DNA of 64,000 nucleotides. Source: Laccaria trichodermophora (Eukaryota > Basidiomycota > Agaricomycetes > Agaricales > Hydnangiaceae). A model generated the notes under the pieces. It was given only the letters and a program-made list of their open reading frames with translations, did no database searches and was not told the DNA's origin. The stretch covers positions 295,953 through 359,952 of the forward strand of contig JACTVC010000041.1 of the NCBI GenBank assembly GCA_018417955.1, written 5' to 3'. Positions 7,633 to 51,080 of the stretch are shown here, piece by piece (position 1 is the stretch's first letter; each line of letters starts with the position of its first letter). The position numbers and the translations under genes are program-made.

Positions 7633-8142
7633 CAAGGGGGCCCAAGGACCTTAAAAATTACACAGGGTCAGTAAATTTTTTTAAGCCATGGGACGTGACC
7701 ACCCCCCCACCCCTCCTTCCTAAAATGGAAATGTCAGACCGAAAAAGGCAACTACAAAAAAAACATATTGTATTTTTGGTTTTCAAGAGGCAGGAGAAGC
7801 ACAAAAATATATCAGTGTGCCTACATAAGTCACAAAAAGGCATTTCAGTTCTCATTTGGTTAAAATCCAAAGATGCACTATAGTGCAATGGTTGGCCAGT
7901 CATGTGTTATTTGGCATAAATGAAGAAAAGAATTAAGAGATTATTAGTTATGAGTCAGAAATGTGTTTGTAGACTGTGTAAAGCACATTAGAATAGCTGA
8001 AGAGAAACTGAGAGTGAAATTGATGGCCATTTGGCCAGTTTTTGGCCTGAGTAGCAAATTTTTTTAAGAGCTCAAGGACCCACCCCCCTCTTGCCCCCCT
8101 CCCCAACCCCTGGTCTGGCATTCAGATCCCTGGACCCCCTTG
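7633..8142 (+). mobile_element. hAT-like MITE, copy 1 (510 bp)
   Basis: Non-autonomous DNA transposon with terminal inverted repeats beginning CAAGGGGG and ending CCCCCTTG. It is flanked by the 8-bp direct duplication GAGAAAGA (7625-7632 and 8143-8150). Subterminal features are a T-run followed by AAGCC and C- or G-rich runs. A near-identical inverted copy lies at 10104-10614. There is no coding capacity beyond chance frames. The 8-bp target duplication fits the hAT superfamily, but KDZ elements also make 8-bp duplications and cannot be excluded without a transposase. Confidence 0.85.
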
Positions 8143-8150
8143 GAGAAAGA

Positions 8151-10089: not shown

Positions 10090-10785
10090 TGGAGTGTTGG
10101 GCCCAAGGGGGTCCAGGGATCTGAATGCTGGACCAGGGGTTGGGGAGGGGGGCAAGAGGGGGGTGGGTCCTTGAGCTCTTAAAAAAATTTGCTACTCAGG
10201 CCAAAAACTGGCCAAATGGCCATCAATTTCACTCTCAGTTTCTCTTCAGCTATTCTAATGTGCTTTACACAGTCTACAAACACATTTCTGACTCATAACT
10301 AATAATCTCTTAATTCTTTTCTTCATTTATGCCAAATAACACATGACTGGCCAACCATTGCACTATAGTGCATCTTTGGATTTTAACCAAATGAGAACTG
10401 AAATGCCTTTTTGTGACTTATGTAGGCACACTGATATATTTTTGTGCTTCTCCTGCCTCTTGAAAACCAAAAATACAATATGTTTTTTTTTGTAGTTGCC
10501 TTTTTCGGTCTGACATTTCCATTTTAGGAAGGAGGGGTGGGGGGGTGGTCACGTCCCATGGCTTAAAAAAATTTACTGACCCTGTGTAATTTTTAAGGTC
10601 CTTGGGCCCCCTTGGTCGGGCCTTGACACTCCAACACTGTGGGATGCATGTTTGGTTGTGTTTGGCAAGGGCTTCGGAGTAGATACACTGTTTGTAGGCA
10701 GACATTCCCATCATCATCATTCACCTCAAGCATTGCCACCAAGCTCTGAGGAAGCATTCCCATCGGGTCACTTGGCACCTCTCCA
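10090..10785 (+). repeat. 5' LTR, interrupted by a hAT-like MITE
   Basis: LTR sequence occupies 10090-10103 and 10623-10785, plus the target octamer. The central 10104-10614 is the inverted MITE copy, so the MITE arrived after the retroelement. The 3' LTR preserves the empty site. Confidence 0.8.
10104..10614 (-). mobile_element. hAT-like MITE, copy 2 (511 bp, inverted)
   Basis: Inverted, near-identical copy of 7633-8142 with the same CAAGGGGG/CCCCCTTG ends. Target duplication: GTTGGGCC (10096-10103) and GTCGGGCC (10615-10622), one mismatch. The intact 3' LTR at about 12072 carries the uninterrupted GTTGGGCC, which gives a direct empty-site comparison. Confidence 0.85.
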
Positions 10786-25100: not shown

Positions 25101-26100
25101 TTCCATAGACATTCTTCTCAGATGCTGATGCACCACGGAACAACAAATCAGATAGCAACTCCTTCCTATGCTGGGAATAAGTCTTCAGAAAATCAAAAAT
25201 ATTGCTGGAATTATTGCTGGAATTGCCTAAGATGTAAGCACCAGCCTGATCAATAGCAATAGGCAGAAATCCAAGCTCAGTCACAATCTGTCTAGCAACA
25301 TCCTTTATATTCTGGTCAGGTTCATCCAGATGACTTGCTTTCAAAAGCAATGAGACTGCCTCCTCTGGCTCCATCTCTATGACTTCTGTAGAGTTCTTTG
25401 GTAAAGTAAGACGCTGCATGTAAGCATTCTGACTAGTTATCAAGATATTCCCTGTCAAGCCAGGTGGAAAGTACTTTTGAAGTTCATCAGGAGCCAGAGA
25501 ATCAGCATTATCAAAGGTCAAAAGATAGTTTTCCTTCAAAGAGCCCAACCACTGGAGAGCAGGCTCAGGTGATGAATTCGCCAGAGAATCATTGCATATG
25601 CCCTTAAGACCCTGGATAATAGTGGTATGGGAGGATGCATCAATCCAGAAGACTTGAGAAAAGCTATAGAAATGAATCTCAAAAAAGGGCACATGAAGTA
25701 GAAAGTTTGTTCACTCACTGACTGGACATCTCCTCAATAAACCTCAGACAAACTTGTGTTTTACCAACGCCCCCCATCCCATAAATGAGGTACTGACGCC
25801 TATGCTGCGAATGTGGATCAATTTGAGAACCAAAGTAAACCTTGAGCTTATCAAGAATTTCCCGTCTGCCAGTGAAGCAAACGTTGGAAGTAGGTCTAAG
25901 TGGAACTGGAACTCTTTCCGACTCCTCAAGCGCCAGTGGTTGAGGCGGTAGAATGAAGTTGTGGTTGTTGATGATCTGTGATGCGTGGATTAGCATCCCA
26001 GCCCGAGATGTAGACAGGCCATAGCCCTTACTGTTTGAGCTGATGTGATTGTACCCCCGCCGATGTGAACATTCTGACTTCCGGAAAGGATTCCAGCCAT
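22118..26100 (-). CDS. NB-ARC/TPR receptor-like (NLR-type STAND) protein
   Basis: Four exons: 26100-26032, 25975-25719, 25663-22371 and 22320-22118, with introns of 56, 55 and 50 bp, all GT-AG. The product is 1,273 residues. The start MAGILSGSQNVHIGGGTI is typical of fungal NLR-type proteins. FTGRREILDKL precedes Walker A GMGGVGKT (about 89-96) and Walker B LLTFDNAD (about 156-163), followed by the GNILITSQN and LGFLPIAIDQAGAYI motifs of NB-ARC. About 16 kinesin-light-chain-type TPRs of 42 residues then follow (LASTYHxLGKYxxAExLxxQVL). The last exon gives a very acidic Asn/Asp/Glu tail (NNEDNDSDQDEDNDDDSD). Such proteins act as nucleotide-switched sensors of non-self or stress; the ligand is unknown. 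One TPR is expanded by a LLPAENAVK minisatellite. No lesion seen. Confidence 0.85.
22680..22790 (-). repeat. 27-bp in-frame minisatellite in the NLR TPR domain
   Basis: Four to five imperfect 27-bp units encode LLPAE(N/D)AVK-like nonapeptides and interrupt TPR 14. The other TPRs have no such insert, so this is a local tandem expansion that kept the frame. Confidence 0.75.
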
Positions 26101-34632: not shown

Positions 34633-35309
34633 ATGGGCCTTCTTTTATTTCCGCCCACCTTTGCAGACAAAAATACTCCTTTTATTTGACTTTCAACAGA
34701 AGAGTATTCTCTATCATTTATCCTCCTCGGTCAGATCACACTGCACACGGTGCACATGCCCGCGACTCTCCGTGGACTCGAACTCCGTTCGCCCCATACA
34801 GCTCCGTGCGGGCGCGCCCAAAATTTCTTGGCACTTTCCTACTTTCCTCCGATACACAAAGTGGTCATTTAGGTTCTGCTCAACTCAACAGTTGGGTGAC
34901 TCGGCGTGTGGGCAGCTTCGAGCCGCGATCGGATACTTGCGGTTGATAGCATGTGGAATTCAAGGCTTATTACATTAAGCGCCCTGTTTTTCCTGTCTAA
35001 TGATCTACATTCGCTTTCTTCCAACCCTCGCCGACTCACGCCAATCTTTGTCTGGCTAGATCAGTCAATAATCGATCACGACACATGTTGCCGCGCGATG
35101 CACGCTTTGACGTTTCAAAGAGCGCCTACACAGCCGGTCATTCATTGGGGAAGACCTGCAGATCATCCCAAGATCTGGAATGTGCGGCCATTGTGTATCT
35201 GATGAGACGCTGCAGTCTTCTATCAAAGCGATCCCCGCGCTCACCTCAAATCACTTCCCCTCCCCTGTATTGCTTCAAAGTAACTCCGTTCTCTTCAACT
35301 TCATTGATC

Positions 35310-35759
35310 ATGCGCGTCCTCCTCGCCTTCGCGATCCTCCTCACTGCGTTTCTTACGTTTGCGTTGGCATCTCCCAGCTCATCTCCGTCCGCCATTCCCT
35401 GTGTATACAAATGCCCAACTAAAGATACTGCCAACCACAATCTTGGTGCACATGTTGAAACCAGCAGCCCCATCTACTGCCAATACAGAGAGGGCTACTG
35501 TCTATACGACAAGGTTAGTTGTATACCCTACGAATATATGTGTATAGTCACTCAATTAAATTCAGATCAGATCACGGGATTGATGACCTCTGATCACGAA
35601 TCCGGACACTGCCCTTCGAAAGCCGTCTGCGCAACGGTCAGCCGTCGCGCTGCTGTTGCTCAATCACCTCGTCAGAAGTCCGCTCGCCAGGTTGATACTG
35701 CGGAGATGAAGGTAAGGGATCAACTTGGGTCAGCTAAGCGCGGTAAGAGGTCGGTTTAG
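35310..35759 (+). CDS. Small secreted Cys-rich protein, paralogue 1
   Basis: Two exons (35310-35513, 35571-35759) encode 130 residues. A signal peptide (MRVLLAFAILLTAFLTFALA) is followed by a mature part with CVYKCPTKDTANH, IYCQYREGYCLYDK and, after the intron, SDHESGHCPSKAVCATVS, giving seven cysteines. A basic tail ends in SAKRGKRSV. No known fold was recognised; in a basidiomycete this profile suggests a secreted effector-like or defence protein, which is inference. The 57-bp intron has no stop and is a multiple of three, so retention would add 19 residues. The paralogue at 50289 fixes the acceptor. About 1.3 kb around this gene is duplicated there. Confidence 0.75.
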   Translation: MRVLLAFAILLTAFLTFALASPSSSPSAIPCVYKCPTKDTANHNLGAHVETSSPIYCQYREGYCLYDKVSCIPYEYMCIVTQLNSDQITGLMTSDHESGHCPSKAVCATVSRRAAVAQSPRQKSARQVDTAEMKVRDQLGSAKRGKRSV

Positions 35760-36451
35760 ATGCCGTTGAGGGGATGGTGAGCAGTGTTCTGGGATTGACA
35801 GTGACGCGTAAATCCTGTAGATGTTGGTGCATGGTTTTATGATTCACTATCATGGCTCTCTCACGCTTTATGGACTCCTACGCCCCAACTCCTTATACAT
35901 ACATAGTCATCCAATCATTTCATAAGGGACATGTAATTTTGTTCTATGTCTGGGCTTAAGACTACATTATTTGTATCGTACCCAGAGGACTTAATTAACC
36001 ATTTATTGGGAATTGTCCTTGTTCGAACCAGAGTGAATGAGATCATGAAGTTCGACTTTTTGACAAAACTCTAAATTAGACTGATAAATGTATGCTCGTG
36101 TATGCTTTCAATCTGATTTGAAAAGGATCAAAATTGCACTCTAGTTTGATTTGTGAATTCTAGTTCTAGCCCTTATTGCTTCGGGATCCTGTATGCTAGT
36201 TGTGTATAATCACTCTTGGGTGGCTGATATCCCCTTCTGAGGGGGTTTGTTGAAAGGCACGAAAGTTGAGTTTCATAACGTTGGCAACATTAATTATAAT
36301 TATGGTACACACAAATGAAAGACAAGACAAATGAAGGCAAAAACAAGGGCAGGCATTGCTAGAAAATGTGTAACGATTCCATTCATTCAACCAGTGGCTA
36401 ACCTGGCGAAAGGTGGTGGTCATCAATTTGAATGAGAACAAAGAAATGAAA
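35760..36451. other. Downstream region shared with the second SSP locus
   Basis: To about 36040 the sequence resembles 50747-51080, downstream of SSP paralogue 2. The rest holds no recognisable gene and adjoins the 3' end of the lysozyme gene. Confidence 0.4.
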
Positions 36452-39400
36452 TTACTTCTTCAAGCCAGTTTCCTCACCATTAAAGAGGTCTTGATCACCA
36501 GGGTTTGGCCCAGAATTTGCATACTGCCAGAAAGTTGTGAAGCTTGTCGCACGGCAAGTCAGTCAAGTCAATTTTGGGAAGGCCATGAACAGATGCTCAC
36601 GACCATCCTGCAGGCAAGTCCCCGATGCTATTTGCTACAAGCCAGAGGGGGTTGGTATTGCCAAAGGCGGGACTGTTCCCTGTACATTCTGTCCACCAAT
36701 TGGGTGCTGTATAAATGACAGTTGAAAAATATAAGTTTTAGACATCAAATCAATAAATTCAAGACTCACTTGGGTACCTAAGAAATACAGTATACTCAGG
36801 TGTCATGAAATTTGCCCTTAATTATGGACGTACCGTGCAGTTGCCGCATGGTAGGTGTTGGAGAAGCTTGTAATCCAGGAAACCATTGCATCGTGACTCA
36901 AGCCGTAGCACGTATCCCCCTTGGGATTATCTAAATAATATCCTTGTCAGCTTTGGAAACATCAATGCGAAATCAACTGGAACATACACTCAATATCAAG
37001 AGCACCAGGGAGAGTGATACCTAAGCATGTCAGTGGCGATAACATTCTATGGATGATGTACTTATGTACCATCTTTGGTCCATCCGCCTGTTTGTGGAAA
37101 TGAAAGTGAGATGGACATCATTTGTGTCGTCCATAACACTGACCACCATGCGCAAGAAAGAAATTTGCCTGATCTGCGCCAGTGCTAATGTCTGGATGCG
37201 CAAAGTGGTATGCTCCATGGATCAGTCCAGCATTAGTCACCCCTGTGTAATGATTGGAAAACGTAGGATCAATGAAACCTATGTGGCAGTCATTGTCAGA
37301 CACAGAGAAGATATTAGTGCACTTACCGGTGCCCTCCATTGCCTTGATGAAAGCAAAAGTAAGCCCATTTGCTTTGACAGTCGCCCAGTTGACGTTTGGT
37401 TGATAAAAAGTACTTAAATCCTTTTATTTATCCGATTTCTCAAGCTACGCAGAAAAAAAATGTTAAGAGAATCAATACTTTATCTTATGAAAAGAAAATA
37501 CCCTAATCATAAAGTATATTTACATAACTTTTCTAGATTTGATGCCGTATTTCTTCTAAGTGGGAGGGTTCAAAGGTTTGAAATCTTAAGTAAAGGCATA
37601 AATAGGTGTACACAGAGTCCCCCAGGTGCTGTGCGCCTGGAGAAACTCGCAAGAAAGATGTCCATTGATGGTAGCGTTGTCCTAATCAATACATAACAAA
37701 AGAGGGTGCAGGAGGGTGGGTAAATGCGCAAACGAGAGCTAACCGATAGCAAGCTCAAGTGGAGGTAAGACGAGGGAGTTGTCTTACAACTTGAGGTGAC
37801 TCCCCCCATGGGTGAGTCTCAAGTATACGGCTCGCCCGCACTGGAAATCGCTAGTCTCCAAGACTAGGAGTATCTCAGGGAGAGGAGAATATTTCATCCC
37901 CAGGCACCCGTGTGCCCTGATTAGACTATAGTAAAAATATTTTTAAACTCGACTAATCGTGGGAGGGTTCAAAGGTTTGAAATCTTAAGTAAAGGCATAA
38001 ATAGGTGTACACAGAGTCCCCCAGGCGCTGTGCGCCTGGAGAATCTCACAAGAAAGATGTCCATTGATGGTAGTGTTGTCCTATAATACCTATAATATGT
38101 AGAAAAGGGGAAGAGGAGGGAGGGGAATTGTCTGTTTGTGGAAATAAGAAAATGTCTGTGGGGAAAGAAAAGAAAAATGTCTGTGGGGAAAAGAAAAGTT
38201 GAGTGGAGTAGAACAGAAGGATGTTGTGAGATACCAGAAAATGGGAAAGGAAGTTAATGTCCAGTAGCTTGTTGGTGAGCAGGACGACCAAACAGCATTG
38301 CATGTAGAAGAATGGGATTCTTCTGTATGTATATATGGAAGGTGTTTGATGCCCAACGCCCAGTGGCTTGAATGATGTGAGGTGGTACACCAGCTTTGGC
38401 GAGGGAAGTGGCTCCGCCGGCTCACATGGATTGGCCTGCAATATCTGATGGGAAGAAGTGGCGTAATTTGCGTATGAACCAGGAACGTGTCGGCACAGTG
38501 CCAGATGTACATAACCAAAGTTCTGGTTTGAAGGGGTGGAGTGTATTGCGAGAGGAGATGTATGTTGTGAAGATGTTGTGAGGGTTTGTAGGAAGATTTG
38601 TCTTCTGAATAATGACAATGTTACCTTCAAAGAAGCGGTCGGCCTTATGGCCAGGCAGCAACAATGAGTAGGTGGTTTGAGTAATGTCAACAGTGTCACA
38701 TAGCATGATTTTACGATAGTCACGAGAGGCCACTCTGTCAGGGAAAGTGAGCTCGCCGAGGCGGAAAAGCCCATGGAAACCCGTGAATAGAATAGCGAGA
38801 AACAATTTTTCATCGTGGTGGGGAGTTGATTGCAGTTGAGACAGAACGGTGATAAGGTCATCTGTTGATAAGGGTCGCTTGCGCCGTATTGTTGTCCCAA
38901 AACGTCGACGACAGCCAGCCAAAGTGCGTGATACGAGGATGCTGTTGCGATTTTTTCGAATGTCAGGGAAATATACTTCTAGCTGATTGCAAATTCCTGA
39001 GAGATACAAGTTGACAGAGTCAGGTTTGATGTGGGCGGACATGTAAACAACAAAGAAACTAAGTGTTTGTTGAGTTGGTTCAATGGGAAAATCGTGGATT
39101 TTGCAAAAGGTGAGATATGAGTTCAATGCGGATGTGTATGTGAGATGAGAAGAATTGTCAATGGATAATCCGAGTGCAATAGACCGTTCGTGCGTAAGGT
39201 GGTCTAGTGACCATGGCTCTCTCTGAGGTTGGCGAGAGCCACGTGAGATGCTAATCATTTTTTGGCTGCCCCCAGCGTCAATTGAGGGGGTTGAACGATA
39301 GTGAGGTGGCAAAAAGGCGAATCAGCATACAATGGGCATGAAAGAGCTTCACTTTGGACAGTCATTATTCTTGTGCCCAGATGAAAGGCACTTGCTGCAA

Positions 39401-42400
39401 ACATGAAGCCGGCGACACTGAGTACTCTCAAGCATGCACAACCCTTCATTCCAGCGGTTGCAAGGTTCAGATAGCTTTTTGCGTGAAGTCACTGAGGGTT
39501 TATTTGGGGTAGCAGTGGATGCATGTTGGACGACAGTGGCACCGATTGAATCCATGTGGGTCGATCTAAGGTCGAAGAACTTGTTGAAGTCAGTGAGCTC
39601 CAAGTCTCGACGAGCACCGACACGTCGCTGAACTGCCTTGTCAAAAAGGATAACACGATCATGAAAGTGTACATCAGTTGCAGCGAATAGCCCAATGATG
39701 TACTCAGCATATTGTGCAAGCTTGCCAGCTCTATGTGGGAAAGCGGCGCATGTAGCTTGTGATGACCGATTCCAAGTGATGCTCCACTCTCCTGTGGTAG
39801 ATACAATTTTTGTTGGATTGACTGTTCTGAAGTGAATTTCGAAGTCCCCGATTTCCTCGACTCGTTCGTTGTTATTGGATGTTGAGTAATATCCAGTGAG
39901 GACAGCGTCAAGGTTGATAGCACGTCCTGTGAGAACATTCGTCCACTCCGAATCTGGAAACTCAGGACAGCTGGGAGAATTGATGAGGGATCGTTTAGTT
40001 CCTTTTGGATCAATAGCATAGAGTTTGAGTAACTCAAGGGATTTAGAGAGTGACGGAGAGAGTGTAGCACCATGAATGAAGTCCGAAATTGTCCAGGGGA
40101 ATTTTGAGTCATCGGGTTTTGCTCGTTTAGGAGATGGGATGTCTCCAAGGTCTTCATCATCGGGATTTGCTTCTGGAATAGGTTGGGGACTTTCTGAACG
40201 TCGACGACGTCCACGGTGTTCAGCTTCTGCGAGGTGTCCTTGATGATTCTCAATAATGGTGAGAAAACAGCTGAATGCCTCTTCAACTGTTGCTGAAGTC
40301 GATTCATCATCAGGGACTGCTTCCAATAAAGTCGTGTAAATTCTGCACAGTGCAATCCCTTTGGAGATCCGAGATGAACGATAGTCCTCAAGGATAGCAT
40401 TGCAAGAGGCGAGAGCAGCATTGGCAATTGGGAAATTCCCAGATCTACCGGCAGCAAACTCTTCGTCTCCTGTAGCGCCAGACCTCTCGTTGTCAACAAT
40501 GGGTTCTTGACCTTGATTTGGATTGACTGTTGATGAATTCGAGTCTCGTTCTCCAACTTGAGCATTGGATTGTTGTGTGGAATTTGTCTCAGCAGCAGAA
40601 CCAGAATTAGGAGTAATAACAGCTTCATTGCTCGTAGACATAGAAAGTGTAGTGATTGAAGATGTTGAAAAGATCTGATGCAGCCATAGGTTGAAAGGTA
40701 AACGCACAAACGAGAGCTAACCGATAGCAAGCTCGAGTGGAGGTAAGACGAGGGAGTTGTCTTACAACTTGAGGTGACTCCCCCCGTGGGTGAGTCTCAA
40801 GTATACGGCTCGCCCACACTGGAAATCGCTAGTCTCTGAGACTAGGAGTATCTCAGGGAGAGGAGAATATTTCGTCCCCAGGCACCTGTGTGCCCCGATT
40901 AGACTATAGTAAAAATATTTTTAATCGTGCAAGGGTGGAAGGAGGTCCATAATCTTGAATAGAAATGAAAGATAATAGGCAAAAACAGGGTTGCGTCGAT
41001 GTGAGGGCAACCCGTGAGAAATGTATTTCACGGCCTTGATGTCCTATTACCTATAAATGTGAGTGAGGGAAAGGGAAGGGGGGGAGATTATGTAAGTGTC
41101 TTTTGGAAAAGGAAGAAAGAAGTTGAGTGGAGTGGAGTGGAGTGATGTTTGTAAGAGGCCGGGATAAAAATCTGAGGCAGTACAAGTCAGAGAAAATAGT
41201 CCAATGTTAAATAAATAAAAAAAAGTCAATAGATCAAATGTTTGTAGCTGGTTGGTGGGCAGGGTGCCCAAATAACATAGCTTGGAGAAGAACAGGATTC
41301 TTTCTGATGTAGATCTGAAAGGTATCCGATGCCCATCGTCCAATGGCTTGAATGATGTTGGGAGGTACACCAGCTTCAGCAAGAGAAGTGGCACCTCCAG
41401 CACGCATAGATTGGCCTGCAATATCAGCAGGGAAGAAATGATGGAGTTGTTTCATGAACCAGGAGCAGGTCGGCACACTGCCAGACTCACACAACCAAAG
41501 TTCAGGTTTTAATGGATGAAGGGTGTCTCGTGATTGTAAATATGAGGTGAAAAATGAGTATGGGTTGGTTGGGAGGTTTGTCTTTTTGATGATAATCAAG
41601 TTTCCTTCGTAGAAGCGGTCGGCCTTGTGGCCAGGCAGCCAAAATGAGTAGGATTTCTTGGTGATATCAACAGTGTGCCGGAGGATAACTTTCCGATAAT
41701 TGCGCTGTGCAACTTTGTCTGGGAAGGTAATCTCTCCAAGACGCATGAGGCCATGGAAACCTGTCTCTAGCATTGAGAGGAATAGTTTGTCATCATGACA
41801 AGTGGAAGACCCTATGGCAGAGATGACAGTTTGCAGATCAGTGGTTGACAGTGGGCGTTTTCGTTTTACAGGAGTTCCAAAGCGGCGTTGACATCCTGTC
41901 ATAGTACGTGACACAAGCATAGAGTTGCGGGTTTTCCTCACATCTGGGAAGAAAGGTTCAAGCTGATTGCAGATCCCAGATAGATAAGAGTTGACGGAAG
42001 AGGGTTTGATATGTGATGACATGTAGACAGCATAAAAGCTGAGAGTTTGTTCAGTGGGTGTGATATTGAACTTGTGGATTTTGCAGAATGTGAGATATGA
42101 GTTCAGGGCTGATGTGTATGTGATGTGAGAAGAGTTGTCGATGGACATCCCCAATGCAATTGACTGTTCATGAACTAGACGATCAAGAGTCCATGGTTCA
42201 TGCTGGGGTTGGCGAGAACCATGTGAAATAGAGATCATTTATTAATTACCCCCAGCGTAGGTGATCGAGGGGGCTGCAGATAAAGGTAACAATGCGTAAC
42301 ATCGGAAGTGGTGGGTCGAGACATATTAGGGATGAAATTACTGGGAGGACGGGCACTCAGGTCCTTTGTGTCCACCCTTGGAGCACTTGTTGCAAACATG

Positions 42401-44060
42401 GAGTTGACGACACTGGCTGCCATCAAGCAAGCACAGCCCCTCATTCCATCGGTTGCATGCCTCCTGTTTCTTGCGTGAAGTCGAGGGTACCTTTGAGATA
42501 GGTAAGCGTTGCACAACAGCTGCACCAATGGAATCCATGTGTGCGGTTCTAAGATTGGCAAATTTGTCGAAATGAGTGAGCTCGAGATCACGTCGGCTGC
42601 CGACACGACGGCAAACAGCCTTGTCGAAAAGAATAACTCAGTCATGGAACAGGATATCAGTTGCTGCAAAAAGTGCGATGATGTACTCAGCATAGTCGGC
42701 CAGTTCTCCCGCACGATGAGGGAAAGCCATTGACGTTGCGCAAGATGCTCTATTCCAAGCGATTGTCCACTCCCCTGCACTTGAAACAATTTTGGTTGGG
42801 GCAACGGTTCCAAATTTGATATCGAGATCACCGATTGACTCAACACGCTCGTCGTTATTGGATGTTGAGTAATAACCTGTAAGTACTGTGTCGAGGTTGA
42901 CTGCGCGACCCGCAAGAATGTTCGTCCATTCAGAGTCCGGGAATTCAGGGCATGTGGGTGAGTTGATGAGGGATCACTTTGTGCCCTTAGGGTCAACTGC
43001 ATACAGTTTGAGGAGGTCGAGTGAGGCTGTGAGGGAAGGGGATAAAGTGACCGAATGTATGAAATCTGAGACAACCCATGGGTATTGAGACTCATCAGGT
43101 TTTGCACGTTTCGTTGGGCGAGACAGTTCCTCCTCGTCAAATTGCTCTTCAACAGGTGATTTTGAACGTTGCCTGTTGCCGCGGCGTTCGGCTTCAGAAA
43201 GGTGGTGTTCGTGGTTTTCAAGGATGATGATATAGCACGCAAAGGCCTCTTCAACTCCTGTCGGGTCTGCTGGTAATGCATCGGTGAGTGTGGTGTAGAT
43301 TCGGCTAAGTGCTGTGGCTTTTGAGATGTTTGAGGCACGAAAGTCTTCGATTGGCTTGTTGCAAGCAGCAAGGGCAGCGATAGAAACTGGGGCATTCCCA
43401 AGTGTTCGATCTCGACTTTGCCCAGATTCCGGTGACAAGGATCGGCGATTACCAGAACCTCGTTCGCCGGAAGTTGTTCCTGGATGCTGTTGATCAATTG
43501 CGCCGTTGTTACCACCTTGAGTAGTGTCGTTGTTACCACCAGAAATAGGAGTTTCAAGAGGAGTAGAAGTTGCATCAACGACATTGCCAGTAGACATGAG
43601 ATGAAATAATGAGGATTTGATCCGATGCAACTAAGAGTTGTAATGTGAATGCAAGATACCGCTACCTCAGAAGGATGGGGTAGGAGGAAGAGAGAGGAAA
43701 GTTCGACTCTGCTCAACCTGAAACGCTGGTCTCAGAGACCAGGAATATCTCGGGGAGAGGAGATGTGTTACGTCCCCTAGGCACCCGTGCGCCCGATTAG
43801 ACTACAGTAAAAATAATTCTAAACTCGATTAAACTCGATTAACCACTATAACTGAAATATGTGATAATGTGAAACCTATTAAGAGAGATGCCAATTTTAT
43901 TAATATAAAATTAATATTTGCAAATAAATATTGCTTATTTTAGAGATCTTGATACGTCGATGCCCATGGGCTGGGCACGTTCATTGATTGTGAGTGGGTT
44001 GGTGCTCACGAAGATGAGAGGAGCGGATACAGTCAGAGCTGCTAGGAATTTGAACTTCAT
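36452..44060 (-). CDS. GH25 lysozyme-type muramidase, first intron filled by a 6.3-kb TE array
   Basis: Exon 1 (44060 to about 43948) encodes a signal peptide (MKFKFLAALTVSAPLIFVST), a short propeptide and GIDVS with the first catalytic Asp of GH25. After the TE array the gene resumes near 37413: FYQPNVNWATVKANGLTF, AFIKAMEGT, DPTFSNHYTGVTNAG, GAYHFAHPD, GALDIEYNP (catalytic Asp-x-Glu), CYGLSHDAMVSW, NWWTECTGNS and FTTFWQYANSG, stop at 36452. Introns: 37279-37326, 37088-37143, 37021-37069, 36931-36987, 36778-36833, one starting 36769, and 36543-36600. The acceptor of the 36769 intron is odd: CAACTG stands where CAACAG would fit, and the next AG drops four residues (IIYT). The exon 1 donor is weak. 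A secreted enzyme cutting bacterial peptidoglycan; whether this allele is still spliced through is unknown. Confidence 0.75.
37560..37684 (-). repeat. Split direct repeat 'a', outer copy
   Basis: 125 bp beginning GTGGGAGGGTTCAAAGG and ending GTTGTCCTA; nearly identical to 37959-38083. Contains a hairpin CCAGGYGCTGTGCGCCTGG. Confidence 0.85.
37719..37958 (-). repeat. Split direct repeat 'b', outer copy
   Basis: 240 bp matching 40697-40926, from GGTAAATGCGCAAACGAGAG to the AAACTCGACTAATC end. Contains the stem CTAGTCTCCAAGACTAG. Confidence 0.85.
37959..38083 (-). repeat. Split direct repeat 'a', inner copy
   Basis: Adjoins the YR1 end of element 1. Copy of 37560-37684, directly following repeat b. 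Confidence 0.85.
38254..39258 (-). pseudogene. Tyrosine recombinase of element 1, one nonsense codon
   Basis: 335 codons from ATG 39258 (MISISRGSRQPQ) to TAA 38254, the same length as copy 2. An N-terminal SAM-like core-binding part (NSYLTFCKIHDF...VNLYLSGICNQL) is followed by the catalytic domain with HGLFRLGELTFPD (first catalytic Arg), LPGHKADRF, and the GQSM-x-AGGA, GRWASNTF and YIQKNP segments (final Tyr). The only break is TGA at about 38419-38421, exactly at the second catalytic Arg (box II), where copy 2 has CGT. The change fits CGA to TGA. Would catalyse DNA strand exchange for integration; inactive as written. Confidence 0.85.
39349..40641 (-). CDS. Gag-like protein of element 1 (intact)
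   Basis: 430 residues from MSTSNEAV at 40641. A low-complexity Ser/Asn/Gln N-terminus precedes a helical central region (ANAALASCNAILEDYR ... EEAFSCFLTIIENHQGH), an Arg/Ser/Pro-rich linker (RRRRSESPQP...SPKRAKP) and a conserved block (WTNVLTGRAINLD, YYSTSNNNERVE, AFPHRAGKLAQYAEYI). The end has a C-x7-C-x6-C-x3-H cluster and a CCHC knuckle (C-x2-C-x4-H-x4-C, CSKCLSSGHKNNDC). The knuckle and position suggest a Gag-type RNA-binding protein. Stop 90 bp before the YR1 start. No lesion. Confidence 0.8.
   Translation of the reverse strand: MSTSNEAVITPNSGSAAETNSTQQSNAQVGERDSNSSTVNPNQGQEPIVDNERSGATGDEEFAAGRSGNFPIANAALASCNAILEDYRSSRISKGIALCRIYTTLLEAVPDDESTSATVEEAFSCFLTIIENHQGHLAEAEHRGRRRRSESPQPIPEANPDDEDLGDIPSPKRAKPDDSKFPWTISDFIHGATLSPSLSKSLELLKLYAIDPKGTKRSLINSPSCPEFPDSEWTNVLTGRAINLDAVLTGYYSTSNNNERVEEIGDFEIHFRTVNPTKIVSTTGEWSITWNRSSQATCAAFPHRAGKLAQYAEYIIGLFAATDVHFHDRVILFDKAVQRRVGARRDLELTDFNKFFDLRSTHMDSIGATVVQHASTATPNKPSVTSRKKLSEPCNRWNEGLCMLESTQCRRLHVCSKCLSSGHKNNDCPK
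40697..40926 (-). repeat. Repeat 'b' at the 5' end of element 1
   Basis: Copy of 37719-37958; on the coding strand it is the leader region upstream of gag1. Abuts repeat a' of element 2 at TTAATC/GTGCAAGG. Confidence 0.85.
40927..41045 (-). repeat. Repeat a' of element 2
   Basis: Starts GTGCAAGGGTGGAAGG and ends GATGTCCTA, so the ends match repeat a (GTGGGAGGGT..., ...GTCCTA) while the middle is diverged. It marks a related but distinct subfamily. Confidence 0.65.
41234..42238 (-). CDS. Tyrosine recombinase of element 2 (intact)
   Basis: 334 residues from MISISHGSRQPQ at ATG 42238. N-terminal core-binding region (NSYLTFCKIHKF, VNSYLSGICNQL), then the catalytic domain: GLMRLGEITFPDK (Arg I), LPGHKADRFYEG (candidate Lys hairpin), GQSMRAGGATSLAEAG (box II with Arg; Gln replaces the usual His), QAIGRWASDTFQIYIRKN (Trp in the His/Trp position, then the nucleophilic Tyr). 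All core residues are present, so it may be active. Family: DIRS/Ngaro/Crypton-type fungal YRs; the split direct repeats favour a PAT/Ngaro relationship. 99 bp downstream of gag2. Confidence 0.85.
   Translation of the reverse strand: MISISHGSRQPQHEPWTLDRLVHEQSIALGMSIDNSSHITYTSALNSYLTFCKIHKFNITPTEQTLSFYAVYMSSHIKPSSVNSYLSGICNQLEPFFPDVRKTRNSMLVSRTMTGCQRRFGTPVKRKRPLSTTDLQTVISAIGSSTCHDDKLFLSMLETGFHGLMRLGEITFPDKVAQRNYRKVILRHTVDITKKSYSFWLPGHKADRFYEGNLIIIKKTNLPTNPYSFFTSYLQSRDTLHPLKPELWLCESGSVPTCSWFMKQLHHFFPADIAGQSMRAGGATSLAEAGVPPNIIQAIGRWASDTFQIYIRKNPVLLQAMLFGHPAHQPATNI
42338..43597 (-). pseudogene. Gag-like protein of element 2, two nonsense codons
   Basis: 420-codon frame from MSTGNVVD at 43597, collinear with gag1 and ending in the same C-x7-C-x6-C-x3-H plus CCHC knuckle (CNKCSKGGHKGPEC). 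Broken by TGA at 42974-42976 (after DPKGTK, where gag1 has CGA Arg) and by a second TGA near 42640 (in FHD*VILF, where gag1 has Arg). Both fit CGA to TGA. The rest of the frame is open, so decay is slight and recent. Confidence 0.8.
43640..43840 (-). repeat. Repeat b' at the outer end of element 2
   Basis: Shares with b the CTGGTCTCAGAGACCAG-type stem, the GGGGAGAGGAG block, CGATTAGACTA and the TAAAAATA...AAACTCGATTAA end. It ends near 43840, where AT-rich lysozyme intron sequence resumes. Confidence 0.65.
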
Positions 44061-46566
44061 CGTTCTGGGGGAGAAAGTCACAATGAAAACTTCCCTGCCC
44101 AAGCAAAGCTTTTAAACTATTCCAATGACTCACAGATGAGAATCCCTGAGCGTGTCTTGCATTTCACCTTAATAATATTTGCCTCAGCGTCAAGATAAAC
44201 ATATAGCAGCTGACCATATGTAAAGCAATGTTCCTGTGTGTCGAGCTACAGGTACACCTGTTTGTTCAGCGTTAGAAAAGTTTGGGGGCCATGTCGCACA
44301 TAAGTTCATAGCTATGTCAGACCCTGTCTGGACTTTTTTTTCAATGTGGGTGGGTCACGCTTGCGATGAATCGAATGGGGATGCCGAGATTAAATGTTGC
44401 TGCTATGAAATTCCCTTTCCTTGCAAATAGGCGACACGTTTTGACGCGTCTCTCCAATCGATTGATGTACAACTGGCGCGCGCTTATATCTATTCAATTC
44501 AGCAAACATGTGGGAGGGCTTACAAGGATTTAACTTGTGTAGAGTGATCCATTCGAACTCCGGCAAGTCGTTTCGTGGTTGAGAGCACAGAATGGAGCTA
44601 CGAGACCAAGCAAGTAATTCCAAACCAATCTTTAGAGGGATTATCATGAACAAGCCGCCTGAAGATAAGTATTTGTTGAACAGGCGAAATTTGCTTCTCA
44701 CGTTGGGTTTAAGTGGAGGAGATAAGATGGGTGGATTCCTCTTCATAGACCTAGGAGATGATGTAGGATCACTTCCACACCAGGGCCCTGGAGATAAAAT
44801 GTGCGTCAATTCGATCATCAGCACGCACTGGCGAGGTTGTCTCAAGGACCCGTCCTGACCGACACATCTGCAGTCTCTTCTCTGAGACAACAAACCGCGA
44901 TAAATCGAGAGTCCTGTTGAGATCTTGGGCTGTGGGGTCGTAAACAAACGGCACTCAGTTTTACAGAGCGAAGCACCTAATCATTGCCTTTGGCCGAAAA
45001 AGCGCCGGGTGGTGTTACATCTAAGCCCAAGCGTGGATACGGTCTGAAGGCTGATGGAATCATGTTAGCTATCTAACACAGTCTCAGTTTCATTTTATAG
45101 GATAGTAATTACCTGGTCGACAAAGAGAAGCGATGTTATTTCGCAAGTGCCTATGTAGTATAACAAAGTTGGACCCATAGAGCCGAGGATGGGCAGCAAT
45201 GTGACCCACCTTCTATACACGTTAGCGTCTTCAAGGCGTGGGCATGATCTAGAATTTTTGTATTCAGCCCCTGATCATGGGACGATATCGGCGTCTAGCA
45301 TCTATGAGCGCCAATGGCCTCAGAAGGACGTGTGTAGAAGGCAATTACTACTGTCACTGTTTCAGATCCAGGCTCTAAGTAGGTTCGGATTTCGGCCCTG
45401 AGAGCGACGTATAATCCACGCTTAGATGTGAGATGAACCTAGTGGTAGTGGCGTAAGTTGGGCGGAGGCCGTCCGATGCCCTGAAACTGAAAATACTCAC
45501 TAGATAATCGTTGCGTAGAGAGAGACAGTACGTGTAAGACGGCAAGAAGATGGCAACTAGGTGGGAAAGGCTAGGGAGAAGGAAGGAAATTTGCTGACAG
45601 GAATGACATTGGGAGCCAGATCTCGTCAATTATCATGAGACCGGGGAACGGACGCATCCACCGTCATTCTCGCCGTTTCCCTTTCGGCAAGGTCAAAGTA
45701 TTCTTGCATGTTTCTTTTGGCGGTCCATTGTACGGTTCACAAGTACGACAAGATAGACGAAGCGTGTTGGCGGTGAGATTGAGCGTTCATTTTCGGAGAT
45801 ACAAATCCCGCAGCGGACTAAAATCAAAATACGTGGGTAAGACAGACCCTTTGAGAAAAAATTCCTCTTTGTCAGTTATGTGGAAATCCATAACTCAATA
45901 TGTCACTCCTGACGAACCATGGTTTCCCCGTCGGCCAACAAGCCCAATCGTTTCGATTTGAGGCATGATGCATGTGAAGGTTCGTCAGCGTGCGTCGAAG
46001 TGATGATTGAGCCGACGGTACAGCCACTGGGTATACGGAAAAAGGAAAGGGTCGACATGTGCAATAAGCAGAGTGAGAAAGCTATTGAGGGAAGGAGAGA
46101 ACACCTGACGGACATGCTTGAACGTTGGCGGCTAGTAGAAAAGCGGCTAGACACAATGACGACTGAGGTAGTTCGGAATTTGTCGGTTTTGGGAAAGGCT
46201 GAGGTCAGATAGATGGCCGAGTGAAGAGGATTAAAATTTTGAAGGGCGACGATATCAGGACACTGGGAGCACTAGTTGGTAAAATGATTGAGGAAACGGC
46301 GAATTGCCTGGTAACGTGCTCACTGCAGTCGAGTGAGCACCTGCATTTCCATAGCGTTGAAGTTTTCAGATGGATTATCTTTCAAGGGTATGAAGAGAGG
46401 ATCATGGCGCAGCAGTCGAATGGCCTCTAAGTGGAAAGAAGAACACGACTTGCAAACTTCCGAGTCACATGTGATTCAACAAAAATCAACAACCATCAAC
46501 ATTGTGATGACAAATTTAAAATACTCGCACCCCACCTCAGGCCTGACGCTTCTGAGTGACAGAAGG
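44061..46566. other. No recognised gene; unclassified short ORFs
   Basis: Upstream of the lysozyme start. Minus frame 44390-44947 (185 residues) and plus frame 45919-46212 (97 residues, charged and helical, KKERVDMCNKQSEKAIEGRR) are open but show no domain that I recognise. Neither is called as a gene. Confidence 0.35.
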
Positions 46567-46610
46567 CCTCAGAGGCCGATTCTTTTGATGGTAGCAATTG
46601 GCCTCTGAGG
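46567..46610. repeat. Inverted repeat CCTCAGAGGCC...GGCCTCTGAGG
   Basis: An 11-bp inverted repeat (extending imperfectly to 15) around a 22-bp loop. The same arms recur at 49335-49378. Confidence 0.7.
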
Positions 46611-49334
46611 GGTATGGTCACTCTATCACTGGCGTGCAAATCCAAATCAAGCAAGCTTCTTTTGACGTCTAAAAATAGCTGGAGCGTCAAGGTGACAGCG
46701 CGCGGTGGCTGCACCGCTAGCCCACTATCCATTGCCGGCATTTAGGCCTCCTCGTAGCTTTCTCAGAATATGGGCACTCTATCAAATCTTGAAACCTTCT
46801 TTATTATACATTCACTCAGGATACAGATCATAGAGGATAAAAATTTATGCCAAAAGTGCATCGGAAGCCTCTTTGCGGGGCCGGCAGGAGCGCGACATCC
46901 TCCCCCGCTCCCATACAATAATGGCTACTGCTTGCATTGTGCAGCTGTGGTTCTGCTTTAAACAGCGGCGCCTGCATCTTTAGGTTTGGGGCTGACTGTT
47001 TCATGGGCCACGACTCGGACGTTCACCCACCTTAAGCAGGCTTGAAAAACAAACACAAAACAAAAACATTGTTCATAAAATTAGAAAAACATGTTAGTCA
47101 CTCCACCACATATCACGCTGTTTGTCCATAGATTATTTGACCATATGGCGTCCTTAAAATAGTATAACAGTTGCTCTTAGACTATTCTGATGCTCTGAAA
47201 ATGTGCCGCTACCTGCCTTTCAACAGGAAATCAGAACTTCATGTTGGTGCATTCTATGACATATTGAATACAGCTGAGAAATGACGTGTAGCTCATAGGC
47301 ATATTAGTTGCATATTAGCTTGCATTTAAACATCCAAACAACAAATTCTGCTCAATGGATGGTTTATTTCCTGGGACCGCTCTCAATTGCAGACAGCCAG
47401 AATAGATTAACATATACATCCGAGCACTGCTATAATTCATGACTGGTTTAGTTGGGAAGAGCAAAATAGCTTGGCGAGGTTCTTAAGCCGTGAATTATCG
47501 TTGGAGTTTCAATGAAGCCCCCCTGAGTTAATCACCGCATTTTTTCGCATTTAAATTATTTCTCGACGAGCACCTGTGACTTTTATTTTCTGAGGGACAT
47601 ACCACCAGGTACTATACAACAACTTCTACAATAACATGTACTCAAAACTGATGCGTGGGGAAAGGACACTGTTAGCTGTTTACCGAAACAGTGCCGTGAA
47701 ATTTACTTTACCTCTAGGCTATCTGCTTCAACCCTTATAGAAATAATATCGATATTGGCCATCGCATAGCCCGGTGCATGAAGAACAGTTTTATCGAGCT
47801 AGTATTGAGGAGGGAGGTAGAAGCGAGCCTCAAATTATATTTTTTTGGAGTAAAGGTCAGACGGCATATGCTACATCAAAGATTGGCAAAGATTATCGTC
47901 TTAAGGATTGTAGCAGCATTTACGGCCTACAATAGCTCCCTCCCCATGAATTTCGTCCTATGCCAAGCCAATTCAAGTACAAAAGAGTAATACTATATTT
48001 CTACGAATGCATGGCTGCCGTAGGATAGAACGAGTGCCTCCAATGTTGTTTTTCATATGTCGCACTGGCAGTCTCCACATCAGAATCTTGTCATTTTTTT
48101 ATTCTACGGCGAATTGGCAGCAAGGATAAAATACGTGTATTACAAGAAACAATATGGTAAGATCCCCTGATAATGTAACCTACACTCAAATAAAATGTAG
48201 TACCTGACCGACAGAGAGGGATAGGATGTCGGCAGAGATTGACATGTTGATAGAATTTGAGAAATAAGAATCGGGAAGCACCTCAATGCCTAGCTCGAAT
48301 ATGTTATGGTCGGAATACATTCCAAACAGAGGAGAGAACTGAAACTCACCGAATAGAAGGGGGCGAACGTCGTATGTCTTGTCAACAAGGGATCATCAAA
48401 AAAAGACGGAAATATAAATGCAAACAGTACTCACTCGCGGATCACTATCCACCTGTTTCTTCCATTCTTTCCTATCGCTGAAAACCTGGCAATGAGTTCT
48501 TTCTCTTCAGAGTAGATGTTTGGGTAGGAGGACGAACGTCGTGACAAAGAGATTTGATGAATGCGCGACGCATCAAGGTCTCAGCAGCGGCTGTAATCGG
48601 GACTCGGTTGGTGAAAGCACTCGAACCGTGATACCAATATGAGCGCAGAGATAGACGACAGGGAAGATTCGGAGTTGAGGAATATCTCAAACGTCGAAAG
48701 GTTCAACTGTCCATGTGTGAACGTCCTGCGCATTGGCCTCCTGAAGTCCGGTCACCCAGGAGGTTGAATTATAATAGACATACCTATCTGGATGGCACAA
48801 AGTCAACCGTCTCCCATAACCCCTTCCACAGCAGCCATAACGCCGCACAGTTGTTTAACGTATGATGTGTCGAGCCATCTCGCAGTGATATCTGGATGTT
48901 AGCAGCGGCGTGAATCCCTGTTTGGTGACAGAGAATGCTGGGCAAGGAGAGTAGGCGGGGTGTGTGGTTGGTGCGCAAACATGTTACTAGGGCGGAGGTC
49001 GTTCGTTGTTGGATTCGTCGCTAGCTAGTCGCCGTAGTAGAAAGCGAGCGCTCTGACTCTGAGTGCTCAAGCGCTCAGCGCTCAACGTTCAACGCTCGCT
49101 GTTTGGTGACGTAGGATTCTGTGCAAGAGACGTAGGCGGAGAAAGTGGTTGGTGGGCAATATGTCACTGAAGGGGGTGGAGGTCGTTCGTCATCGGAAGG
49201 GGTTCGTCGCTGGAAGCGAGCGCAAGCGCTCAAGCGCTCATGTGTAGCGTGTGTCCGGACACCGGCAACCATCAGCCGGAGCTATTTTTGGAACGACAGC
49301 GTGGGCATTGCGTGCGATGTGACAGGATTACCCC
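46611..49334. other. No gene recognised
   Basis: AT-rich in the first half with short frames only. From 48917 to 49243 there is a diverged tandem duplication. The interval is bounded by the two copies of the CCTCAGAGGCC inverted repeat. Confidence 0.35.
48917..49243. repeat. Diverged tandem duplication (about 180 and 145 bp)
   Basis: TGTTTGGTGAC...GTAGGCGG...GGTTGGTG...GGAGGTCGTTCGT occurs at 48917 and again at 49099. Each copy ends in clustered AGCGCTCAAGCGCTCA octamers. Confidence 0.6.
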
Positions 49335-49378: not shown

Positions 49379-50203
49379 CCCCCTAGCGCTTAAGAAGCGC
49401 CAGGCCCGAGGTGTCGCACCCAACTCGCACCCAACAAAAACCAGGTCGCTCTCACTGGCTTCCCTCTTAAGACCGACAAAACGTCTTCAATTTCCTTAAG
49501 CGTTGTGTATGACACTTAAGGGTGCTCACAGATTTGCCAGTGCCAATCGCTATCACCCCCGGAACTTGGAAGTTGTGTTCAAGCTGCGCACAGCTAAAGT
49601 GGGTTCTCCGCTATTGGAATTTTCCCCGCCCACCTGACAGACAGAAATACTCTGACTTCAACAGAAGGCTGTCCTCCTAGGCCAGGTCAATCTGCAAACG
49701 CGAACCCGATTCTTCGTTGACTGTAAGTTCCAAGTTCACCGATTTAATACCGTGCAGACGCGCCTGAAACCTCTTGGCAGTTGTTTATCTAGGTCCTCCT
49801 GAAGTCACCAGTTGAAAGATTCGGCCCATGTCAGCAGCTAATTATATCGAGCCGCAATAGGATGCCTGCGGTTGACAGCGTGACATCATTATGCATACAT
49901 GCACAAAGCCCGGAATTCAAGCTTACTTCAAGACTCTAACGGTAAGCGTCCCTCTTTAATGATATCCTTTCGCTTGTGCTTTCCTTTTTTTCAGCCCTCC
50001 CTCGACTGGCACCTACCTCAGTGAGTATAGCTTACTAAAACGATTTACAATCGAAAACCTCCCCACTTGCTCTCCACCCTCAAAGTATTGACCCCTGACA
50101 CATGTTGCCGCACGATGCACGTTTTGGGGCAGCGCTCACACAGCCAGAGGGGATCGTCCAAAGATCTGGAATGTCGTGTATCTAATTAATGGCCGCAGTC
50201 TCC

Positions 50204-50210
50204 TATATAA
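50204..50210 (+). promoter_or_regulatory. TATA box of SSP paralogue 2
   Basis: TATATAA, 79 bp upstream of the ATG, in a promoter segment otherwise conserved with SSP paralogue 1, which lacks this exact motif. Confidence 0.5.
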
Positions 50211-50288
50211 ACAATCTCTGCGCCCACCTATCATTCTCTCCCCCTTCACTCATTCACTCCAACTCCATTCTCTCCACCTTTCCCGATC

Positions 50289-50746
50289 ATGCGCTACCTC
50301 CTCACTTTCTTTACGATCCTCTTCAGTGCGTTGCTTACATCTGCGTCGGCATCTCTTAGTCCATCACCGTCCCCTGTTCCCTGTGTATACAAATGCCCAA
50401 CGAAAGATACCGCCAACCATGCTCTCGCTACGCATGTTGAATCCAGCAACCCCATCTACTGCCAATATGGAGAGGGTTATTGTTTATACGTCAAGGTTTG
50501 CCGTATACCCTACCAAATTATTATGTATATCATCACTGACAAGTAAATTCCGATCAGACCACGGGAGTGTTGAGCTCTGATCACGACTCCGGACACTGCC
50601 CTTCGAAGGCCATCTGTGCAACGGTCAGCCGTCGCGCTGCTCTTCCTCAATCTCCCCGTCAGAAGTTCGCTCGCCAAGCCGATACTGCGGAGTTGAAGGT
50701 AAGGGATCGACTTGGATCAGCTAAGCGCGGGAAGAGGGCGGTTTAG
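50289..50746 (+). CDS. Small secreted Cys-rich protein, paralogue 2
   Basis: Two exons (50289-50495, 50558-50746; 62-bp intron GTTTGC...GATCAG) encode 131 residues. Signal peptide MRYLLTFFTILFSALLTSAS, then the same core as paralogue 1: CVYKCPTKDTANHALATHVE, IYCQYGEGYCLYVK, SDHDSGHCPSKAICATVS, basic tail ending SAKRGKRAV. Seven cysteines in conserved positions. Unlike paralogue 1, the intron contains stops, so splicing is required. Upstream (from about 49615) and downstream (to about 51080) sequences also match the 34.6-36.0 kb locus, showing a segmental duplication. Function unknown; secreted effector-like by profile only. Confidence 0.75.
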
Positions 50747-51080
50747 ACGCCGTCAGTGAGTGAATGGTGAGTAGTGTCATCTTGTCAGCTGGGACTCGTG
50801 GTGACGCATAAATGCTGTAGATGTTGACGCATGGTTTCACGATTTAACACTACTTTCACGGCTCACTCACGCTTTACGGACTCCTACGCCCCGATTCCTC
50901 ATACATACATCATCATCCAATCTTTCAGCGGACATGTAAATTTCTTCTACTTTTGGACTTGTTCTGGATATTTTGGACTCAAGACTGTATTGTTCGTATT
51001 GTACCTTACCTGTACATAGCGGGGACTCCTTGATTAGGCATACATTGGGTAGCCTTCCTTACTCAGGCCAGAGTGAGTCT

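What the first reader, a model, noticed from the sequence alone, without database searches (positions are those of the whole stretch)
37560..43840. Two diverged YR elements with Gag and tyrosine recombinase but no reverse transcriptase
Both elements have the same compact plan: repeat b, a gag-like ORF ending in a CCHC knuckle, a 334-residue tyrosine recombinase, repeat a. Only 90 and 99 bp separate the two ORFs, so no RT/RNase H was ever squeezed in between. The two copies differ strongly in repeats and proteins yet share the plan, which argues for an established RT-less lineage and not a single deletion. Split direct repeats are known from PAT/Ngaro retrotransposons, which normally encode RT. 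This could be a stable parasite using RT in trans, or a YR element moving as a DNA circle while keeping a Gag.
Basis: partly seen in the sequence, partly recalled or inferred. Interest (0 to 1): 0.78.

Follow-up and report, generated by a model that had tools for sequence, protein, structure and literature searches.

The report
Mushroom retrotransposons lacking reverse transcriptase
In a mushroom genome, a whole family of jumping genes lost its copying enzyme long ago yet kept its packaging protein, its DNA-joining enzyme and an emptied shell of the lost gene, which suggests it lives off the copying enzyme of related elements.

Summary
In detail: 37560-43832 (minus strand) carries two tandem RT-less elements, Gag + tyrosine recombinase (YR), with PAT/Ngaro-type split direct repeats. 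Each window copy has one broken ORF: gag2 has two TGA, YR1 one.

They belong to a clade ("alpha") of 24 distinct loci in this genome. 0 of 26 classed alpha YR hits have RT upstream; RT lies upstream in 24 of 24 beta, 18 of 18 gamma and 1 of 1 intermediate hits. Alpha subfamilies are mostly saturated at synonymous sites, yet gag and YR stay constrained (dN/dS 0.04-0.17). Seven of 21 loci read have both frames open. Terminal repeats are 90-100% alike within elements, at most 81% between subfamilies.

"No RT was ever there" is wrong: alpha keeps the last codons of ORF2 (RT), ending at the ATGA that starts YR, and a hairpin shared with RT-bearing relatives; the +1 ORF2 frame over gag is still open in intact copies.

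Best reading: a long-lived non-autonomous Ngaro-type lineage using RT in trans, with an RT-emptied ORF2 shell perhaps kept to deliver ribosomes to YR. Trans-use of RT and the translation model are inferred; spread beyond this genome is weakly tested.

The parts
43645..43832 (-). element 2 A repeat (left/5' end)
   Evidence: 96% to the A repeat of L012; D6/D7 families
42339..43597 (-). gag2, CCHC at C-terminus, two in-frame TGA (42976-42974, 42640-42638)
42235..43584 (-). element 2 ORF2 shell (+1 frame over gag2, open, 449 codons) ending in the TGA of the ATGA overlap with YR2
42235..42276 (-). relic of the RT C-terminus (PPRSPTLGVINK*) with CCCCC/GGGGG hairpin, overlapping the YR2 start
41234..42238 (-). 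YR2 tyrosine recombinase, 334 aa, open
40927..41051 (-). element 2 B repeat (approximate ends), fused to element 1 near the GATTA core
   Evidence: ends by analogy with L013
40697..40924 (-). element 1 A1 repeat
   Evidence: 95.6% to A2
39349..40641 (-). gag1, 430 aa from its first in-frame ATG, open; CCHC motif at the C-terminus, a further conserved Cys/His cluster before it
39255..40628 (-). element 1 ORF2 shell (+1 frame, 457 codons, one TGA at about 39491) ending in the TGA of the ATGA overlap with YR1
39255..39293 (-). relic of the RT C-terminus (PPQLTLGAAKK*) with CCCCC/GGGGG hairpin
38254..39258 (-). YR1 tyrosine recombinase, one in-frame TGA at 38424-38422
37959..38083 (-). element 1 B1 repeat
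   Evidence: 96.8% to B2
37719..37946 (-). element 1 A2 repeat
37560..37684 (-). element 1 B2 repeat (right/3' end)

Best explanation
The two elements are members of a long-established, RT-less lineage of Ngaro-type YR retrotransposons. An ancestor with gag, ORF2 (RT/RNase H) and YR lost the RT/RNase H core from inside ORF2, in frame. The lineage then diversified while keeping Gag, YR, the split direct repeats A1-[ORFs]-B1A2B2 and an open ORF2 shell. Shown: absence of RT, the relic, selection on gag and YR, homogenised repeats, an open shell in intact copies. Inferred: the RNA is packaged by its own Gag, copied by RT supplied in trans by RT-bearing relatives in the same genome (beta or gamma), circularised and integrated by its own YR. 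Also inferred: ORF2 is reached by leaky scanning past the weak gag AUG, and YR by termination-reinitiation at the AUGA where ORF2 ends, which would explain why the emptied ORF2 frame is kept open.
For: 26 of 26 classed alpha YR hits (24 loci plus 2 in a duplicated stretch) have gag 91-115 bp upstream (one 702 bp) and no RT upstream; 24 of 24 beta, 18 of 18 gamma and 1 of 1 intermediate hits have RT upstream, 0-355 bp away. Against all 72 RT hits, only two alpha hits have any RT hit within 20 kb, both distant (about 25% identity) and downstream. Between alpha subfamilies YR dN/dS is 0.04-0.12 where dS could be estimated, with dS mostly 1-3 (one pair with dS 25.7 gives 0.01), gag 0.09-0.17; alpha pairs at dS 0.17-0.72 give 0.11-0.21. 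Repeat identity within alpha elements: A 89.9-100% (15 elements), B 93.3-100% (11); best to another of the 5 subfamilies: A 65.9-81.3%, B 61.8-79.6%. 160 of 168 within-element differences (alpha and beta together) are transitions, 95 CpG-type. RT tail PP[QR]..LG..K* and CCCCCTC / GCTGGGGG / AAATGAT shared with beta. +1 frame over gag: 2 stops in all against 64.5 expected, summed over the 10 alpha copies tested; YR control 74 against 102.4 over 10 ORFs. A +1 ATG at +10/+13 in 17 of 17; gag ATG has a pyrimidine at -3 and the +1 ATG a purine in 17 of 17. A beta copy with all three frames open and 99.7-100% repeats exists in the genome.
Against: No direct evidence of reverse transcription of alpha RNA or of which RT serves it. 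Homogenised repeats could in part come from gene conversion. Split repeats were not detected in 6 of 21 alpha loci read (el2, L014, L022, L028, L038, L039), and only the A pair in 4. The shuffle null is biased: 4 of 10 YR control ORFs are depleted of +1 stops at 5/400 or less. In 6 of 14 alpha copies with an assigned gag start the shell holds 1-3 TGA, and in most copies without one a stop lies 26-851 bases before YR. Overlapping-frame identity is low (34-41% where gag is 65-70%), so a function of the shell's protein is not supported. 'Gag' rests on position and zinc motifs; its predicted fold matched no solved structure. RT identity of beta/gamma rests on weak Pfam matches below the curated cut-offs. 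Only one genome could be read with context.
Confidence: 0.75

Rival explanations
1. The elements move as DNA circles by YR alone, Crypton-like, and Gag is a leftover or has another role.
For: YR is conserved and the elements carry a shared core-like junction at their ends; five A-B solo copies without a YR hit nearby were seen, as excision of an A1-ORFs-B1 circle would leave.
Against: gag is under purifying selection; the A and B repeat pairs stay homogenised per element although the subfamilies compared differ by at least 18.7% in A and are mostly saturated at synonymous sites, which template copying explains and cut-and-paste does not. Solo copies also arise by plain homologous recombination.
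Confidence: 0.12
2. Several unrelated recent deletion derivatives of RT-bearing elements, dead on arrival.
For: Many copies carry TGA stops.
Against: Alpha is one clade with deep splits (100/97 against beta and gamma, 96/88 with six metagenome proteins inside), RT-less in 26 of 26 classed hits, constrained, with the same linker relic; 7 of 21 loci read have both ORFs open and three have 100% identical A repeats.
Confidence: 0.03
3. Same RT-less lineage, but the ORF2 shell encodes a functional protein of its own, which is why the frame is kept.
For: The shell frame spans 425-457 codons in the 14 alpha copies with an assigned gag start, free of stops in 8 of them, with a start of better context.
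Against: Gag dS is not lower than YR dS in 6 of 6 unsaturated alpha pairs and 1 of 1 beta pair, and overlapping-frame identity falls to 34-41%, so the residues seem hardly constrained.
Confidence: 0.1

Closest known systems
Ngaro YR retrotransposons of Agaricomycotina (Muszewska et al. 2013, PMC3783388)
   Same: Gag-YR order, split direct repeats A1-[ORFs]-B1A2B2, no methyltransferase; beta and gamma relatives here have the gag-RT/RH-YR plan.
   Different: Alpha lacks RT and RNase H. That survey says all four fungal Ngaro groups hold members with RT, RH and YR and built its trees on the concatenated domains; the parts I saw (passages, parts 2 and 3 of 5) report no RT-less lineage.
SIRE, truncated non-autonomous form of VIPER (PMC6681497, passages seen)
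   Same: Non-autonomous derivative of a YR retrotransposon that keeps the terminal regions.
   Different: SIRE keeps only about 185 bp of the 5' and 220 bp of the 3' part of VIPER; alpha keeps gag and YR under selection.
TR-GAG elements of plants (features recalled; only a search listing seen)
   Same: As recalled, non-autonomous LTR elements that keep a Gag ORF without pol.
   Different: As recalled, LTR elements without YR; a different order of elements.
Crypton (PMC3212892, passages seen)
   Same: YR transposon without RT.
   Different: Cryptons have neither terminal inverted repeats nor long direct repeats; alpha has split direct repeats and Gag.

Membership tests
Ngaro | tyrosine recombinase ORF | tested here: met
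   YR2 predicted fold matches Cre, E 2e-9; Pfam PF00589 below 0.01 in 10 of 30 aligned proteins, not in YR2 itself
Ngaro | split direct repeats A1-[ORFs]-B1A2B2 | tested here: met
   both repeat pairs in el1 and 10 further alpha loci, A pair only in 4, none detected in 6, of 21 read; both pairs in 4 of 6 beta or intermediate loci
Ngaro | reverse transcriptase and RNase H between gag and YR | tested here: not met
   0 of 26 classed alpha YR hits; 43 of 43 beta, gamma and intermediate hits have it. RT/RH identity of beta by weak Pfam RVT_thumb and RT_RNaseH matches
Ngaro | no methyltransferase (unlike DIRS) | tested here: met
   no MT match in the Pfam scans of the alpha, beta and gamma ORFs given; RT runs directly into YR in beta
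Ngaro | YR/RT phylogeny with named Ngaro references | not tested
   no named reference proteins were fetched
Crypton | no long terminal repeats | tested here: not met
DIRS1-like | inverted terminal repeats and MT domain | tested here: not met
   repeats are direct; no MT match

The most novel reading that the evidence does not exclude
A stable satellite lineage of YR retrotransposons that lives on the RT of its relatives and keeps an RT-emptied ORF2 whose only remaining task is to ferry ribosomes (leaky scanning in, termination-reinitiation out at AUGA) to the recombinase: an open frame selected for being open, not for its protein.
Probability: 0.4. Interest if true: 0.78.

Novelty: new variant of a known kind. 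Interest (0 to 1): 0.62.

Why it matters
Non-autonomous elements often lose their coding capacity; this lineage lost the central enzyme and kept Gag and YR under selection through near-saturating divergence. That makes RT sharing between YR retrotransposons testable, and the retained ORF2 shell gives a natural deletion experiment on how the three proteins of a Ngaro element are translated from one RNA. I found no account of either in the searches listed, in a library that lacks most subscription papers.

Tried and rejected
Considered and rejected: independent recent deletions; Crypton membership (repeats); gag stop readthrough giving a Gag-YR fusion (further stops in the gag frame of the el1 and el2 linkers, read). 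The C44 copy was first taken as a second copy, but 12.4 kb including flanks match at 99.98%, so it was not counted as independent. Viral contigs gave no relative. Fold of Gag: low confidence (pLDDT 61), no match. PDB by sequence: no useful match for YR or RT.

Equal contig lengths of metagenome proteins (119 of 120 listed YRs, 65 of 81 gags): 7 matches against 0.64 expected. At least two fail on inspection (P0080/P0122 do not fit on one contig; P0003 and P0146 are of different subfamilies), P0107 competes with P0012 for P0131, and P0006/P0147 looks doubtful. Only P0012/P0131 and P0046/P0132 look sound and leave no room for an RT; in a subset chosen after seeing them they are 2 against a mean of 0.001 in offset controls. 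YR-RT on part of the lists: 2 against 0.77, uninformative. The RT status of the large 60-65% metagenome group is unknown. Searches failed on input rules; 21, 47 and 67 repeated them correctly.

Rows dropped before the count: distant YR hits (about 25% and many short ones), split pieces of one gene (merged or one piece kept), and short fragments, among them C33:134209-134418 (69% over 66 residues; no RT hit within 20 kb; no gag hit near) and C33:45858-46034 (51%). The RT list left out 13 of 72 short or distant hits; one search repeated the alpha side with all 72. Searches score only the best candidates (120 of 144 for YR, 72 of 84 for RT), so counts are lower bounds.

Full report
Observation. 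On the minus strand of 37560-43832 lie two tandem elements. Both encode a gag-like protein with a C-terminal CCHC motif and a 334-codon tyrosine recombinase, 90 and 99 bp apart. gag1 and YR2 are open; gag2 has two TGA and YR1 one. Element 1 has the full set A1-[ORFs]-B1-A2-B2. Element 2 shows one A and one B and is fused to element 1 near the conserved GATTA core.

Genome context. The host genome (59.0 Mb, 77 contigs, unnamed) was searched with YR2, gag1 and a relative's RT. Pairing the hits gives three groups. Alpha: 26 YR hits at 68-100% identity, all with gag upstream (91-115 bp, one 702 bp), none with RT within 6 kb upstream. Beta: 24 hits at 53-60%, all with RT upstream. Gamma: 18 hits at 31-35%, all with RT. 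One intermediate (46%) has RT too. With all 72 RT hits and both strands, two alpha hits have an RT hit within 20 kb; both are distant matches (about 25%) downstream of the element. The C44 stretch with two alpha hits is a 99.98% duplicate of the window including flanks, so alpha has 24 distinct loci, 21 of which were read. Dropped rows are told under Tried and rejected.

Nature of beta and gamma. Between gag and YR they carry an ORF with weak Pfam matches, below the curated cut-offs: RVT_thumb in 3 of 3 long ORFs scanned, RT_RNaseH in the 2 beta ORFs, none in two decayed C33 pieces; no PDB match by sequence. One search found 1,314 related proteins; among the 120 listed, one is named by a source as a reverse transcriptase domain protein. 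RT identity rests on these and on the Ngaro plan.

Lineage. In the YR tree alpha (19 rows) is one clade against beta and gamma (100/97), with six metagenome proteins inside (96/88), and el1 and el2 fall on the two sides of its deepest split. In the gag tree alpha and beta are likewise separate, but a group with Galerina and metagenome gags joins alpha at an unresolved fork. Between alpha subfamilies YR dS is mostly 1-3 (several pairs saturated beyond estimate) with dN about 0.1-0.2 and dN/dS 0.04-0.12. Gag dN/dS is 0.09-0.17. Alpha pairs at dS 0.17-0.72 give 0.11-0.21. Very close pairs give 0.27-0.75, as expected for decaying copies. Seven of the 21 loci read (L011, L012, L014, L015, L017, L022, L024) have gag and YR both open.

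Repeats. The same self-comparison finds split direct repeats in alpha and beta: both pairs in el1 and 10 further alpha loci, the A pair alone in 4, none in 6. In L011, L012 and L015 the A repeats are identical (184, 184 and 229 bases). Over five subfamilies, within-element identity is 89.9-100% for A and 93.3-100% for B, and the best match to another subfamily is 65.9-81.3% for A and 61.8-79.6% for B. In multi-copy subfamilies a repeat can be a little closer to a sister copy than to its own partner. Differences are decay-like: 160 of 168 transitions, 95 CpG-type, alpha and beta together. Repeats alike within an element while subfamilies diverge point to template copying at each transposition, hence RT in trans; gene conversion is not excluded. 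An end motif of the form TCGAGTTTAAA...TTTACT..AGTC.AAT, with variants, links alpha and beta ends. Five A-B solos without a YR hit near were seen (C26, C76, C4, C67, C12).

The relic. In beta the RT ORF ends PP[QR]LPLGAP[KQ]K* with its TGA overlapping the YR ATG (ATGA). Alpha keeps PP[QR]..LG..K*TGA at the same place; four copies (L013, L020, L025, L027) have a stop in place of the Arg/Gln codon, and L028 and the duplicated el1 on C44 do not keep the frame. CCCCCTC, GCTGGGGG and AAATGAT are invariant in 8 alpha and 3 beta sequences, while the rest of the linker does not align well. The decayed intermediate differs. So RT was once there.

The shell. The +1 frame over gag, which in beta and gamma runs on into RT, was tested in 10 of the alpha copies whose gag frame is open. 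It has no stop in 8 and one stop in 2, against 4.8-8.5 expected per copy from synonymous shuffles; at most 1 of 1000 shuffles was as low in 9 of 10, 12 of 1000 in el1, and 8 and 16 of 1000 in two beta copies. The copies are related, so these are not independent. The shuffle null is biased: in the YR control 4 of 10 ORFs are depleted of +1 stops at 5/400 or less and 3 of 10 of +2 stops at 8/400 or less. Summed, the control has 74 stops against 102.4 expected, gag +1 has 2 against 64.5, so the contrast stands. The shell runs 425-457 codons to the ATGA in 14 alpha copies with an assigned gag start; 8 have no stop, 6 have 1-3, all TGA. Of the alpha copies without an assigned start L039 is open over 1.4 kb, while the el1-like and other decayed ones have a stop 26-851 bases before YR. 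Two of three beta copies are free of inner stops; one has a TGA and a TAG. Gag-stop to YR-ATG distances are 78, 90, 93, 96, 99 and 102, all multiples of three, in 20 of 21 alpha rows measured; the exception, 89, is the C44 duplicate of el1. L028 (YR start lost) is not counted. The +1 ATG stands 10 or 13 bases after the first gag ATG in 17 of 17 elements; the gag ATG has a pyrimidine at -3 and the +1 ATG a purine in 17 of 17 (14 alpha and 3 beta, related copies). Gag dS is not reduced, so residues of the shell look unconstrained.

Elsewhere. Metagenome protein P0006 fuses a Gag C-terminus with CCHC in frame to YR without RT, so the plan occurs outside this assembly. Gag relatives come from Laccaria bicolor, L. 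amethystina, Galerina, Mycena and Crucibulum; the L. bicolor P0127 is close to gag2, so the host is probably a Laccaria (inference). Two equal-length contig pairs suggest RT-less members in the sister group, an inference from lengths only, on a subset picked after the fact.

Known work. The fungal survey PMC3783388 says all four Ngaro groups have RT, RH and YR members. I found no RT-less Ngaro lineage in searches. Leaky scanning and termination-reinitiation are known mechanisms of viruses (search listing only); their use here is my inference.

Noticed in passing
window 40920-40940: Element 2's B repeat is joined to element 1's A1 near the GATTA core with no A2-B2 of element 2 seen, as if YR (or recombination) had joined two subfamilies at their cores.
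   Followed up: partly
G000:C44:147516-159900 against window 36252-48638: 12.4 kb duplicate, 99.98% identical with two 1-base gaps, including flanks: haplotype, assembly duplicate or segmental duplication.
   Followed up: partly
L036 (G000:C67:621300-631299): Two RT-bearing gamma elements lie head to head; the parts of their ORFs printed look identical.
   Followed up: no
G000 C26:330252-330529, C76:726076-726516, C4:348192-348540, C67:835249-835642, C12:32449-32824: Solo A-B repeats of alpha type without a YR hit nearby.
   Followed up: partly
window 22363-25710 (-): A 1116-codon open frame with internal repeats (self-matches at about 65%, shortest offset 126 bp).
   Followed up: no
window 7633-8143 and 10103-10614: Inverted repeat of 512 bases, 99.4% identical.
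   Followed up: no
window 35161-35957 and 50152-50960: Direct repeat of 0.8 kb, 79% identical.
   Followed up: no
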